This document shows positions 14,816-20,029 of a stretch of DNA of 64,000 nucleotides, piece by piece; within the stretch, counting starts at the first letter, position 1, and every line of letters begins with the position of its first letter. The DNA is from Baylisascaris procyonis (Eukaryota; Nematoda; Chromadorea; Rhabditida; Ascarididae): NCBI GenBank assembly GCA_037389465.1, contig JAZARR010000067.1, positions 81,001-145,000 of the forward strand, given 5' to 3'. The position numbers were made by a program, and so were the translations under genes. The notes below the pieces were generated by a model, which searched no databases, had not been told where the DNA came from, and saw only the letters and a list, made by a program, of their open reading frames with translations.

Positions 14816-17800
14816 ATGGGAAATCAAGTTGTAAGACCCGATAAAAAAGGAGTGGCAATGCCTCAACATGCACCAATGAAGATCGCTAGAAAGCCACAAA
14901 AAGGACCAGAAGCTTCAAGCAAGCTTCCCACAGGTTCGTTGAAATCACTATTGCCAGCATTTAATATCTAGTTTAAATAGTTTGTGATAAAGAGATTTTC
15001 TCTTGGGAAGGAAGTGAAAAGGTCAGAATTAACTGTGCGACGATAATTATCCTCACTGTTTTCAATTCTTCACTTCTTCCAGAAGCGAACCAATCGACTG
15101 CTTAACTACCGGGGACATAGATCAACAATTTTCATTTAGGTTTAGCCAGAGAACGCAAATGAATTAAGAGCTGCGATGAGAAGAGTTAAAACCTAAATGA
15201 ATAACAATAAAATTATACAGTTAATGTTAGTGAAGAAAACATGATTACAAGCACAGCTAGAAGGAACTACTAAGTGTTGTCATTATACGCTAAACAGATT
15301 AATATTTAGTAATATTTAAATAGGCATTTTAAATCGGCCACCCCCTTCCGCTACCTGTATCAAAAATGTTTTGTATTTTGCTGTGCTAGTGATTCGCTAA
15401 CGAATTGAGTTCTTTCGACGATTATTTATAGATTAATCGAAGCTTTCGAGGTTTTTGCAAAGAATTTCACCAACGCTTTCAATTTACCTAGTAAAGATGA
15501 GAGTAGAGATGAAATAACTCAACGAGAACATCATGCAAACCGATACTAAAAATTTGCAGAAAAAAAAAACAAAATATTATCCCCTTTGTCTCTCTATTTC
15601 GCATTTATTGCTTCCGATTTTATAAATTTACCTCAATTTACTAAACGAAACATGCGAATAATAATGCGAAAATTGTTTTTTTTTTTTGTGGTGAAGATAT
15701 TAGGATTGAAAATCCAAAAATTTTAGTGACACCACGTCGAGCATGTCTCCTAAGATTTCTAAAAATGAGTCGTGTACATGACTATCTTCTACTCGAAAAA
15801 GAATTCATTCAACGTCAAAGTAAACATGGTTCTATCGGTCAACAACAAAAGAAAGAACGTCGTATTGTACATGCACTTCGTGGTTCACCTATTGCTCTTG
15901 CACGTGTACATGAACTTTTCATTGACGAACAGGTTACGCTATATTATTATTGAATTCATGCAAATAATGCGATCTATCAAACTCATCCTCTTTGATAATA
16001 TCATCTATGCAGTAAATTTCGTATCTATTATTTTTATTTTCATAGGTACAGTATGCAGCTACCGTATTTTGTTGCATTTAAACCTCATTTTCTTCAAGAT
16101 CTTTTTAAGAACCGATTTTGTAGTTAGTTACCCACATAACAGCTAGTATCAGCTATACACCCCAGATAATACAAAAAAAATTTTTTTTTAACGAGTTATT
16201 TTCAGCATGCAGTGGTAGTGGTTGAGGGTTATAAACGTGAATGGTATATACCAATTCTATCGATCGTCGATAAGGATCTTATACGAATCGGTGCATTAGT
16301 GATGGTTAAAGCGCACGGTTCCCTTAAAAATATTCCTAGCGCAATTGTTGGTGTACTACATGATAGTGTTGATTCGAGCTCACTTGTTCATAAGCTTGAA
16401 AAAGCGCCTAAGGAATCATTCGAGGTTAGTTATATGATTGAAATTTTTATTAAAAATTTGAATTTCCTTTTTCTAGACTGTCTATAGATATACCGATAAT
16501 CAAGTTTAATGACGCTAAAATATGATGCATTCATCGAAGAGTACGAAAATCTAAACATTTTTTGCTGCCTTCTGCCATTATAATTCCACTTATCTGATTC
16601 GTTCATAATTTGTAAAATGATACGATAGACATCTTTTTCAAAGCCAAATATAGTATGTAAATGCTGAAATATTTCAATATTAATATCTTATGCAATCCAC
16701 TACATAATTTTTTTTTTCAAATTTCTTTTTTTTTATTTTCAAAGTTAATTTTTAAATGAAATCCTCATTTTAATCGAGAAGAAATGATTGCCTTATAGAT
16801 GCTTGTCATAAATATCTATTGATTCTCATTTTCTTTATCGGTTATTTGATTTTGTGAGTAATGATCGAATAATTTTAAGGATATCGGTGGTCTCGAAGAG
16901 CAAATTGAAGAAATCAAAGAAGCTGTGGAATTACCATTAATTCATCCAGAATATTATGAAGATATGGGTATTACGGCACCTAAAGGTGTTATTCTTTATG
17001 GCGAACCAGGAACTGGTATTTCTCTTACATATTCCTCAAATATATTTAATGCGCTTGGTGCGGATGATTTAACCGGCTAAATCGATTCGATCGATGCATT
17101 TTCCTTCAACTGTTTATGACGGATTTATGAATAATGGTCAAAGATGAAGCATTGAGGAAACCAGTTTAACCGATGCAATTGCACAAATTCCTCATTTGTT
17201 ATTTTATTGAAAATTCATGTATGAAATATACGTAGAGAGGATTTGCAAATGTTTGCAAATGGAATGAGAAAGGAGCTGCAGTAGGCATATGGTCATTACT
17301 GAAGCAATTGTTCAATGCAGGAGATTAAGGGTTGAAATTTTGACGTAGTGAATGTGTTAGTGAACTTATCAGTGTACTTGTTCACCTTATCACTCTACTA
17401 TATTATTGATGTTTCATATGATTTTTTCTATATTTCTGCATTGCAAACAACATCTACATTCCTATCAGCTTTTTTTTTTTTTAATTTCAAGTCCATCGGT
17501 TCAATGCTGATGAAATTCATCAAGTGATTAGCGAGGACACTGATGCGTATCAATCCAGAAATGAACCTATTATCTATCTACCGGTCAAGCCATTTATGGC
17601 TCAAAATTTTCATGTAGTCGTGATCTGCAGCTCGAATTTTCCGCATATTATATGGCTAGATCTAACATAAGCCTATGCCTTGCTTCTGTTAGCACTATAC
17701 CTCTATATTTATCTCGTCTAAGTACTGCTTTATTTCTTTGTTTCAACGTATAAGCTCCTGGCCAATTTTATCTCCAAAACGAAGAAACTTTCTAATAATT

Positions 17801-20029
17801 TTCGATTCGAAGAGAAACTTTTTTCTGCTCAATAATAAATGCTTCTCGATTTCGAGGTCAAACAAATAAGCTTTACAACGTTGTGATAGTTAGGTATAAA
17901 GGTAGGTAAAATGCTTAATTAAACGGCTAAACTTAATAAATCGTAAATGAAGTGAACATAATTAAAGGTAAAACACTTCTTGCTAAAGCGGTCGCTCATA
18001 GCACATCGGCAACATTCATACGAGCAACAGGTGCCGATCTCATACAAAAGAATAGCGGTGAAGGAGCAAAACTTGTGAGGTAATTCAAGAGTAAATTATA
18101 AATGCTTCGTAAAGTAGACGCTTATATCAAGTGTTTATTATCAATAATATATAACGAGCAAAATCGATCCGATAGCAAATTTTACATAATATTTCAACTT
18201 TATCGAATTTTTTCAAATATTATTTAATATCAATTTGAGATGCTGGATTCTTTCCTGCAAAAAATCAAATGAAACTAAATTCGTCGAAATTTTATGTGAA
18301 ATTTTATGCAATAAAACAGTGAATGATTCCACTGATTCAGCTTCTCTACTTCAACTACGACTGTATATTTTTCTCGCGAAAACTCAATCCACTGACGTGA
18401 TTAGCCCTTGTTTCCTCAGTCATTCTCTACCTATACGGATTATCGTCTTTGCAGTTTATTGCATTCTATCCGTACTCCCTATACTATGCCATATGCCATG
18501 CCTGTACCATCTGCGTCTACATAACCGTTTCTATAGAGATCAGGTATATTTAAACAATTTGCACGATAATAATTCGAATATTTTCAGGGAGTTGTTTAGA
18601 TTAGCAAAGGAATCAGCGCCTTGTATTGTTTTCATTGATGAAATCGACGCTGTTGGTACAAAACGTTACGATACGAGTAGTGGTGGAGAACGTGAAGTAC
18701 AAAGGACACTATTGGAATTGTTGAATCAAATGGATGGCTTTGAAAGCCGTGGAGATGTCAAGGTTTTACTACTACTAATTATTGTTAATTATCGTATAAT
18801 CCTGAACAAAAGATCCTCTTTAATGGAAGTTATGTGATGCTTTCTATCTCGAAATTCTTATATAATAATACACTCTTCTTAGCTGAAGGTTTATTTAATT
18901 ACATACTCGACTTTAAATTCAAGCTTAAAAACAAGTACATATATATTTGCTTCACCTGGAGTCCAGTAAATATTGTTTTGATTCTCGTCGTAGTCTGAGG
19001 TACGTATCCGTTTTCCTCTTATAGAGATTTAAAGGGTTTATAATAGCATTTTATTTCATTGCAAGTTATAAACTTCAGCTTCAGTAGGTAAATATCGATC
19101 GTACGATGAAATGATTTTCAGATAATAATGGCAACGAATCGTATCGATGTACTTGATCCGGCTTTGATCCGTCCGGGTCGAATCGATCGGAAAATCGAAT
19201 TACCAAAACCGGATGAAAAGACAAAGCTAAGAATATTTCAAATTCACACGTCTGGTATGAAAATTGCCGATGAAGTAAAATTTGAGAAGATTATCGCTAA
19301 AGAAAGATCCTTATCAGGGGCTGATTGCAAGGTAAAATACTAATCATTTTCTTTCAATATTATTTCTTCTTTCGAAAAAAAAATTGAGTTGTATTGTTGA
19401 AAGGATTTAACTCGTGATCAATGCATATAGTGAAGATAAAAGTACAAGCGATCGTGAAAAAAAAAAGACTATTTATATATTTTTCGCTGTTTTTCTTTTC
19501 CCAAATTTAGTCATATTTTGAGGTGAATATTAAATAATAATTTTCCAATTCACCTATTTTCCACTTAAAATATTCGAGAGGTATTTCGATACGGCAAATG
19601 AAAAATGAAATCCTTAAATGTTTAGCATCTATAATATTTCTAGTAAAACATCTTTTACTAAAATGATTTTGTTATGCTCAATAATTTATAAAGCATTGTT
19701 ATTCACTTTTTTTTGGAAGAAAATAAACTAAATCGATGAATAAAAAAAATAAATAAACAAACTAAATTATTAGGAAAATTATAAGTTTTTAATATATCAA
19801 TAAGCATCGAAATAAAACAAATAAAACGTATATAAAAGTTTCATAAATATAATAATAATAATATAATGATAGTGGAAAATTTATTTATTTTAAGGCGATT
19901 TGCACTGAAGCTGGTATGCTTGCACTTCGTGCTCAACGAAAATTAGTCTGTATGGAAGATTTTGAAAAAGCTATCGAAAGGGTTCTTCTCAATAAAAAAT
20001 CCGATGCACCAGAGGAATTCTTCTTGTAA
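14816..20029 (+). CDS. 26S proteasome regulatory subunit 4-like AAA ATPase (divergent Rpt2 paralogue)
   Basis: Eight exons join in phase: 14816-14933, 15727-15932, 16206-16424, 16880-17015, 17968-18079, 18588-18762, 19122-19331 and 19895-20029. They give 436 residues against about 440 for Rpt2/PSMC1. Rpt2 is one of six ATPases in the 19S base that unfold substrates and open the 20S gate. Order: N-terminal tail with Gly2, short coiled coil (about 50-85), OB domain (about 90-180), AAA domain from DIGGLEEQ (182), Walker B IVFIDEID (D281, E282), paired Arg fingers in LIRPGRIDRK, C-terminal helical domain. Odd features: Walker A is GEPGTGKT (usual GPPGTGKT). Pore loop 1 reads QKNSGEG where Rpt2 has QKYLGDG. 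The C-terminus is FFL instead of HbYX LYL. Ser6 after Gly2, favoured for N-myristoylation, is absent. The hexamer scaffold is kept, so a paralogue with altered unfolding or gating is more likely than decay; the canonical rpt-2 is presumably elsewhere. Confidence 0.95.
17488..17670 (+). other. coding-like open frame inside intron 4 of the Rpt2-like gene
   Basis: From codon 17488 to the TAA at 17668-17670 there are 60 sense codons without an ATG. The product has mixed composition (for example VHRFNADEIHQVISEDTDAY, then NEPIIYLPVKPFM). A polypyrimidine-TTTCAAG acceptor precedes it. It could be an alternative exon, a remnant of another gene or chance. Its frame does not continue the ATPase. Confidence 0.25.

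What the first reader, a model, noticed from the sequence alone, without database searches (positions are those of the whole stretch)
16880..20029. Rpt2-type proteasome ATPase with changes at three functional motifs
Seen: Walker A GEPGTGKT (17000-17020, completed in exon 5), pore loop 1 KNSG at 18048-18059, C-terminus FFL at 20018-20026. Known for Rpt2: GPPGTGKT, KYLG with the aromatic residue that grips substrate, and HbYX LYL that docks in the 20S alpha ring and opens the gate. The Walker B acids, Arg fingers and Walker A Lys are kept. Inference: a paralogue retained for a special proteasome, perhaps stage- or germline-restricted, or a non-pulling subunit.
Basis: partly seen in the sequence, partly recalled or inferred. 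Interest (0 to 1): 0.8.

Follow-up and report, generated by a model that had tools for sequence, protein, structure and literature searches.

The report
Gripless nematode Rpt2-like proteasome ATPase
Many roundworms carry an old second version of one proteasome motor protein whose protein-gripping loop has lost its gripping residue, so they may build an alternative protein-degrading machine with a changed motor.

Summary

It is neither a local oddity nor the lineage's ordinary Rpt2. It belongs to an old nematode clade of Rpt2 paralogues: 51 database relatives, 37 named species, in ascarids, filariae, Tylenchina and Rhabditina. In the tree the paralogues are one side of a 100/100 branch. Toxocara canis and Aphelenchoides avenae show both genes.

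Only one of the three motif changes is diagnostic. Pore loop 1 lacks the aromatic in 52 of 52 paralogue rows and keeps it in 170 of 170 canonical-like rows. Walker A 'E' also occurs in 21 of those 170. The C-tail keeps Hb-[Tyr/Phe]-X in 48 of 51 relatives. Catalytic residues are kept.

Best reading: an ATPase-competent alternative Rpt2 with a non-gripping pore loop, probably built into a special, perhaps germline, 26S proteasome. Incorporation and tissue are inferred. This genome's own canonical rpt-2 was not located: that genome search did not complete. Ten literature searches listed no paper whose title or abstract start describes this paralogue.

The parts
14816..14933 (+). exon 1: MGN... 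N-terminus (possible N-myristoylation start, as in Rpt2; recalled) and KGPEASSKLPT segment
   Evidence: GT donor at 14934; aligns to the human Rpt2 N-terminal segment
15727..15932 (+). exon 2: coiled-coil region and RGSP (proline of the helix-to-OB linker)
   Evidence: helices 44-72 and 76-90 in the model; Pro kept in 44 of 50 scorable paralogue rows
16206..16424 (+). exon 3: OB-domain region with a short insertion relative to canonical Rpt2
   Evidence: strands 95-158 in the model; Pfam PF16450 not detected
16880..17015 (+). exon 4: start of the AAA domain and first part of Walker A (GEPGTG)
   Evidence: GGC GAA CCA GGA ACT G at 17000-17015
17968..18079 (+). exon 5: rest of Walker A (GKT) and pore loop 1
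18048..18059 (+). pore loop 1 KNSG (canonical KYLG); aromatic absent
   Evidence: 0 of 52 paralogue rows aromatic, 170 of 170 canonical-like rows aromatic
18588..18762 (+). exon 6: Walker B (VFIDEID), TKRYDTSSGGEREVQR segment and LLNQMDGF
19122..19331 (+). exon 7: ATNRI, Arg-finger segment RPGRIDR
   Evidence: RPGRIDR in 51 of 52 paralogue rows, one gap
19895..20029 (+). exon 8: C-terminal helical part, tail EEFFL and stop
   Evidence: AAA_lid_3 in P0001
20018..20026 (+). C-terminal FFL, a hydrophobic-Phe-X variant of the HbYX tail
20278..20283 (+). AATAAA, the only such hexamer in the 700 bases after the stop; candidate poly(A) signal

Best explanation
This is the ascaridoid member of an old, nematode-restricted (in the data seen) paralogue of the proteasome ATPase Rpt2 (PSMC1). 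SHOWN: an intact spliced gene; a clade separate from canonical Rpt2; ATPase motifs kept; the pore-1 aromatic replaced by Asn, Ser or another non-aromatic residue in every paralogue row; the Hb-aromatic-X tail, the linker proline in most rows and an Rpt-like domain order kept. INFERRED: the protein takes the Rpt2 place, between Rpt1 and Rpt6, in a subset of 26S proteasomes. There it binds and hydrolyses ATP and docks through its tail, but its loop gives no aromatic grip on the substrate. It also lacks the Rpt2 tyrosine that in yeast appears to hydrogen-bond the Rpt3 pore-2 loop and help hold the resting s1 state (PMC13186983). Because yeast proteasomes with Rpt2 Tyr-to-Ala degrade almost normally, such a motor would be retuned (resting-state stability, channel crowding, slipping), not dead. 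LEAST CERTAIN: use in a restricted tissue, most likely the male germ line.
For: Gene intact, 8 exons, GT-AG introns, open frame. 51 relatives, 37 named nematode species. Paralogues on one side of a 100/100 branch in a 59-row tree (28 of the 51 relatives plus the window) and in a 36-row tree. Both genes in Toxocara canis (P0043 canonical, P0005 paralogue; 58.6% identical) and Aphelenchoides avenae (P0080, P0037; 54.7%). Pore-1 aromatic 0 of 52 against 170 of 170. Walker A Lys/Thr 51 of 52 (one gap), Walker B Asp-Glu 52 of 52, Arg-finger segment 51 of 52 (one gap). C-tail pattern 48 of 51, MG start 40 of 51. Nearest solved sequence is human Rpt2, 521 bits; the AlphaFold model's first 34 Foldseek rows are Rpt2 chains. 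Transcription inferred: P0001 is on a 1,619-base contig although the gene spans 5.2 kb. Rpt1, Rpt5 and Rpt6 exons of the same genome keep aromatic pore loops KYVG, MFIG, KFIG. Yeast Rpt2 Tyr-to-Ala: near-normal ATPase and only minimally affected degradation (PMC13186983).
Against: No evidence that the protein is in any proteasome. No expression data by tissue. This genome's canonical rpt-2 was not located. Paralogues evolve faster than canonical Rpt2 (Toxocara against A. avenae: canonical 90.3%, paralogue 71.9%). Pfam does not recognise the OB domain. Strongyloididae, Rhabditophanes and P0057 have lost the linker proline (6 of 50 scorable rows). The structure model is of modest quality (mean pLDDT 72.5, pTM 0.52). 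dN/dS was not computed, for want of relatives' DNA.
Confidence: 0.65

Rival explanations
1. It is simply the ordinary, fast-evolving Rpt2 of this lineage; there is no second gene.
For: The canonical gene of this genome was not found: a PF00004 scan scored only 19 of 110 candidates and listed neither a canonical Rpt2 nor the window's own gene, and the canonical Rpt2 query did not complete. The pore-loop change is shared by all orthologues.
Against: Toxocara canis, an ascaridoid relative, shows both genes, as does Aphelenchoides avenae. Canonical nematode Rpt2 rows form their own 100/100 branch with KYLG. The canonical row P0054 stands for 61 clustered sequences (their species are not shown).
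Confidence: 0.04
2. It is an AAA ATPase derived from Rpt2 that no longer works in the 26S proteasome, for example a free 19S-like or chromatin-associated remodelling subunit.
For: Long stem branch (0.53-0.80 changes per column on the two sides of the midpoint), loss of the pore aromatic and divergence of the OB domain.
Against: The Hb-aromatic-X tail that docks on the 20S core is kept in 48 of 51 relatives, as are Arg fingers and, mostly, the linker proline; these features serve ring assembly and core docking.
Confidence: 0.13
3. It is an inhibitory or stalling subunit: incorporated, it makes proteasomes that bind substrates but unfold them poorly, storing or silencing proteasomes in some cells such as sperm.
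For: The aromatic is lost in 52 of 52 rows. The second loop residue is also changed to Ser, Ala or Gly, which the yeast Tyr-to-Ala test does not mimic.
Against: A single Rpt2 Tyr-to-Ala in yeast leaves degradation only minimally affected (PMC13186983); the ATPase motifs are under strong conservation.
Confidence: 0.15
4. It is a decaying pseudogene.
For: None found; only the higher rate of change relative to canonical Rpt2.
Against: Open frame, clean splice sites, 432 of 436 residues identical to P0001, invariant catalytic residues across distant nematodes, contigs of transcript size in the databases.
Confidence: 0.01

Closest known systems
Rpt2 / PSMC1 / 26S proteasome regulatory subunit 4
   Same: Best match by sequence (521 bits to human Rpt2) and by model; same domain order, N-terminal MG and KGP-SKLP-TP segment, ATPase motifs, Hb-aromatic-X tail
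   Different: About 59% identical to a canonical vertebrate row; no pore-1 aromatic; insertion in the OB region; 18 alignment columns (15 outside the insertion) with a different fixed residue at an 85% cut-off in each group
Drosophila testis-specific proteasome paralogues (named Rpt3R, Rpt4R, Rpt6R from recall)
   Same: Extra paralogues of proteasome subunits kept for a special proteasome; a review passage says that 19S and 20S subunits are duplicated and testis-expressed in Drosophila (PMC12650242)
   Different: A different subunit as recalled; whether those paralogues lack pore aromatics was not examined here
C. elegans RPN-6.2, reported sperm-specific lid paralogue
   Same: Nematode proteasome paralogue linked to sperm (PMC9428126 passages, which cite a personal communication)
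   Different: A lid scaffold subunit, not a motor ATPase
Mammalian spermatoproteasome (alpha4s/PSMA8)
   Same: Germline variant of the proteasome made by swapping in one paralogue (PMC12650242 passages)
   Different: A 20S core subunit, not the motor

Membership tests
Rpt2 (PSMC1) in the broad sense | closest to Rpt2 among solved proteasome ATPases | tested here: met
   human Rpt2 521 bits; the best row that is not Rpt2 among the 60 listed is a VCP-like ATPase, 422 bits over two stretches; rows 1-34 are chains B or I (Rpt2), first other subunit at row 35
Rpt2 (PSMC1) in the broad sense | ATPase site: Walker A GxxGxGKT, Walker B DEID, Arg fingers | tested here: met
Rpt2 (PSMC1) in the broad sense | linker proline of the Rpt2/3/5 class (PMC4453063 passages; its place at RG[ST]P is recalled) | tested here: met
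   window RGSPI; 44 of 50 scorable paralogue rows; not in Strongyloididae, Rhabditophanes or P0057
Rpt2 (PSMC1) in the broad sense | OB domain | tested here: inconclusive
   Pfam PF16450 not detected in P0001 or P0030 but detected in canonical P0043; the model shows five strands at 95-158, modest confidence
Rpt2 (PSMC1) in the broad sense | HbYX C-terminal tail | tested here: inconclusive
   window FFL: hydrophobic-Phe-X, Tyr replaced by Phe; 33 of 51 relatives have Tyr
canonical Rpt2 (orthologue) | aromatic residue in pore loop 1 (K-[YF]-x-G) | tested here: not met
   KNSG; 170 of 170 canonical-like rows have Y or F
canonical Rpt2 (orthologue) | groups with canonical Rpt2 of related nematodes | tested here: not met
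testis- or germline-restricted proteasome paralogues | restricted expression | not testable with these tools
   no expression data; papers report proteasome genes enriched in Ascaris testis in general (PMC3203103, PMC9768952 passages), without naming this gene in the passages seen
alternative 26S proteasome subunit | incorporation into the 19S base | not testable with these tools
   needs purification and mass spectrometry

The most novel reading that the evidence does not exclude
Much of the phylum Nematoda (at least Spirurina, Tylenchina and Rhabditina) has kept, since before those groups split, a second heterohexameric proteasome motor in which the Rpt2 position is deliberately gripless: a natural five-paddle unfoldase used by one cell lineage, probably male germ cells, with a different resting state and substrate preference.
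Probability: 0.3. Interest if true: 0.85.

Novelty: new variant of a known kind. Interest (0 to 1): 0.62.

Why it matters
Why the six Rpt pore loops are unequal is an open question, studied mainly with engineered yeast mutants. A natural, long-conserved Rpt2 paralogue without the pore-1 aromatic is an evolutionary version of that experiment, and it suggests that animals outside insects and vertebrates diversify the 19S motor itself and not only the 20S core. Because Caenorhabditis species carry it, it is testable in laboratory worms. It also means that nematode 'regulatory subunit 4' annotations mix two different proteins.

Tried and rejected
Rejected: reading the Walker A 'E' as a functional change (21 of 170 canonical-like rows have it; Hydra P0149 and Fraxinus P0047 among named rows). 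Rejected: loss of the HbYX tail (the pattern is kept). Rejected: pseudogene and local tandem copy (tblastn of P0001, P0043 and P0093 on the window finds only this one gene).

Not settled: whether the duplication happened inside nematodes. The best tree with paralogues and nematode canonical Rpt2 held together is only 1.70 log-likelihood units worse, p-AU 0.377; long branches are in play, and the bootstrap had not fully settled. Absence outside these nematode groups is not shown: each protein search scored about 8,000 candidates and listed 120. P0057, an unnamed divergent row with KTSG, was used as the third query; its best full-length matches are paralogues (57-61%) but it stays unplaced (support 80/29). 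Its list brought no paralogue that the first two searches had not listed.

Led nowhere: plasmid tblastn; expression in papers; Rfam and tRNA scans (none). dN/dS was not computed: no relative's DNA was held. The tail count of 48 of 51 is mechanical and includes P0041, whose end comes from a truncated gene model; the three misses (P0004, P0005, P0008) also end in aberrant models.

Rows dropped: P0053 (named archaeal CDC48) was sorted with the paralogues by score and taken out, leaving 52; the 170 canonical-like rows still include P0050 and P0168, which have the lowest margins (1 and 52 bits), may be CDC48-like, and were not removed. The trees use subsets (28 of 51 relatives plus the window; 13 of 51 plus the window). 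The alignment uses 24 relatives plus the window and 30 canonical rows; that of A2 23 paralogue and 13 canonical rows, P0001 first, in place of the window protein, which differs from it at 4 residues.
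Full report
What is in the sequence. The gene runs from 14816 to 20029 on the + strand, in eight exons with GT-AG introns and no stop or frameshift; it encodes 436 residues. The three motifs are at the stated places. Exons 1-3 lie upstream of the stated range and carry the MGN N-terminus, the KGPEASSKLPTVTP segment, the coiled coil and the OB-domain region. An AATAAA follows at 20278. No second copy lies in the window.

Which worm. Row P0001 (unnamed source) differs at 4 of 436 residues and the A. suum row F1L0V0 (P0003) at about 1% over 422 residues; Toxocara canis P0005 is 94.8% identical over 401 aligned residues. 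The window is therefore from an ascaridoid close to, but by these four residues probably not, Ascaris suum or A. lumbricoides; that is inference. The held genome has 272,845,182 bases in 293 contigs and the window is C67:81001-145000.

What it is. The nearest solved sequence is human Rpt2 at 521 bits; other listed matches are weaker (best 60 of 294 shown). Three protein searches, each listing 120 of about 8,000 scored candidates, brought 51 relatives of the same type from 37 named nematode species: ascarids (Ascaris, Toxocara), filariae (Onchocerca, Wuchereria, Dirofilaria), Tylenchina (Panagrolaimus, Bursaphelenchus, Aphelenchoides, Steinernema, Strongyloides, Parastrongyloides, Rhabditophanes) and Rhabditina (Caenorhabditis, Pristionchus, Mesorhabditis and many Strongylida). 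Many are simply named regulatory subunit 4 or regulatory chain 4. In a maximum-likelihood tree of 59 rows the paralogues are one side of a branch with support 100/100, and inside the clade the Spirurina rows (100/100) and Rhabditina rows (99/98) group as species do. A second tree without the longest rows agrees. Toxocara canis and Aphelenchoides avenae have both the canonical gene and the paralogue, 58.6% and 54.7% identical. So this is an old duplicate and not the ordinary Rpt2. Whether the duplication is nematode-specific is not settled: holding the paralogues with nematode canonical Rpt2 is not rejected (p-AU 0.377), and the lists are capped.

Which changes matter. All 222 protein rows and the window were sorted by two profile models into 53 paralogue-like and 170 canonical-like. 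One of the 53, P0053, is named as an archaeal CDC48 and was removed; 52 remain. Pore loop 1 reads KNSG 32, KSSG 9, KTSG 6, and KHGG, KESG, KQSG, KTAG and a gapped KNS- once each: 0 of 52 aromatic. The canonical-like rows read KYLG 160, KYSG 5 and five single variants, all with Y or F: 170 of 170 aromatic. Walker A has E in 46 of 52 and P in 5 (one gap), but E also in 21 of 170 canonical-like rows, beside P, V, A, S, Q, C, D, L and I. The E is thus ordinary. The tail follows hydrophobic-[Tyr/Phe]-X in 48 of 51 relatives, 33 with Tyr and 15 with Phe; the Ascaris-type and filarial rows with an intact end have Phe. Catalytic residues are kept: Walker A Lys/Thr 51 of 52, Walker B 52 of 52, RPGRIDR 51 of 52, the misses being gaps. 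At an 85% cut-off in each group, 18 columns have a different fixed state in the two groups; three of these are in a short insertion of the OB region.

Constraint. The paralogue changes faster than canonical Rpt2: Toxocara against A. avenae is 90.3% identical for the canonical and 71.9% for the paralogue protein; nematode canonical rows average 91%, paralogues 69%. It is still strongly constrained, with many invariant columns in a 20-row alignment. dN/dS was not computed. Transcription is inferred from contigs of transcript size carrying the whole frame, such as P0001 on 1,619 bases.

Structure. AlphaFold2 on P0001 with 36 rows gives mean pLDDT 72.5 and pTM 0.52: helices 44-90, strands 95-158, then an AAA core and lid. 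Foldseek rows 1-34 of the 50 shown are chains B or I, which labels regulatory subunit 4 in the entries they share; the first other subunit is row 35. TM-scores are only about 0.5, as expected if the domains are placed loosely. The OB region is present in the model although Pfam PF16450 does not see it in P0001 or P0030.

The rest of the ring. In the same genome the PF00004 scan gave exons whose best solved matches are Rpt6 (L001, KFIG), Rpt1 (L007, KYVG) and Rpt5 (L004 and L005, MFIG) (of the two Rpt5 places only the L004 exon was searched, and L005 differs from it by two residues in the shared part). Those three partners keep their aromatic. Rpt3, Rpt4 and canonical Rpt2 were not seen: only 19 of 110 candidates were scored, and the scan did not list the window's own gene either.

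How it most likely works. In yeast, single Tyr-to-Ala changes in pore loop 1 are unequal: Rpt4 and Rpt6 changes are severe, while the Rpt2 change leaves ATPase similar and degradation only minimally affected; the Rpt2 tyrosine contacts the backbone of Rpt3's pore-2 loop in the resting state (PMC13186983: abstract, section 6 and passages). The paralogue has made this substitution permanent, together with a change of the next residue to Ser, Ala or Gly. The prediction is a proteasome that still works but with one paddle fewer and a differently held resting state. Where it is used is unknown. A male-germline role is the best guess, from analogy with C. elegans RPN-6.2 (PMC9428126 passages, citing a personal communication), Drosophila testis subunits and the mammalian spermatoproteasome (PMC12650242 passages), and from reports that proteasome genes as a group are high in Ascaris testis (PMC3203103 and PMC9768952 passages). 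None of these passages names this gene.

Is it in print? Ten searches of the held library listed no paper whose title or start of abstract describes a nematode Rpt2 paralogue. One search, for the phrase 'proteasome regulatory chain 4' with nematode, found 0 papers. A 2015 study of proteasome regulator evolution (PMC4453063, 12 of 17 passages seen) reports six PSMC clusters and does not mention it in the passages seen. Subscription papers are mostly not held. I file it as a new variant of a known kind: a proteasome subunit paralogue of a familiar sort, with an unfamiliar and long-conserved change in the motor.

Noticed in passing
window 56298-64000: A (CTAT)n tetranucleotide array of at least 7.7 kb, 1,926 copies at 99% match, running off the window. 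The next 10 kb of the contig begins with N and holds 1,616 more bases in perfect CTAT runs (L010).
   Followed up: partly
window 41376-42266 (+): Two open stretches with weak protein-kinase matches (PF07714, below Pfam's cut-off): probably exons of one kinase gene.
   Followed up: no
window 49209-49574 (-): An open stretch matching ELMO/CED-12 (PF04727, above the cut-off).
   Followed up: no
L004 (G000:C93:695370) and L005 (G000:C130:249189): Rpt5 exons at two places on different contigs, almost identical in protein and exon layout: a recent duplicate or two haplotypes of one gene.
   Followed up: partly
P0048, P0049, P0056, P0122, P0121, P0057 (not in the window): The paralogues of Strongyloididae and Rhabditophanes and the unnamed row P0057 have lost the linker proline; the four Strongyloididae rows also have P in Walker A. 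A sub-lineage with further change.
   Followed up: no
P0043, P0080, P0092, P0094 (not in the window): Canonical nematode Rpt2 itself varies at the second Walker A residue (Ser or Cys in these four rows, Pro in P0054), which shows how loose that site is.
   Followed up: no
window 17016-17967 and other introns: The Walker A codon run is split by an intron (GGAACTG|GTAAAACA), so exon-by-exon scans can miss or shorten the AAA match of this gene.
   Followed up: partly
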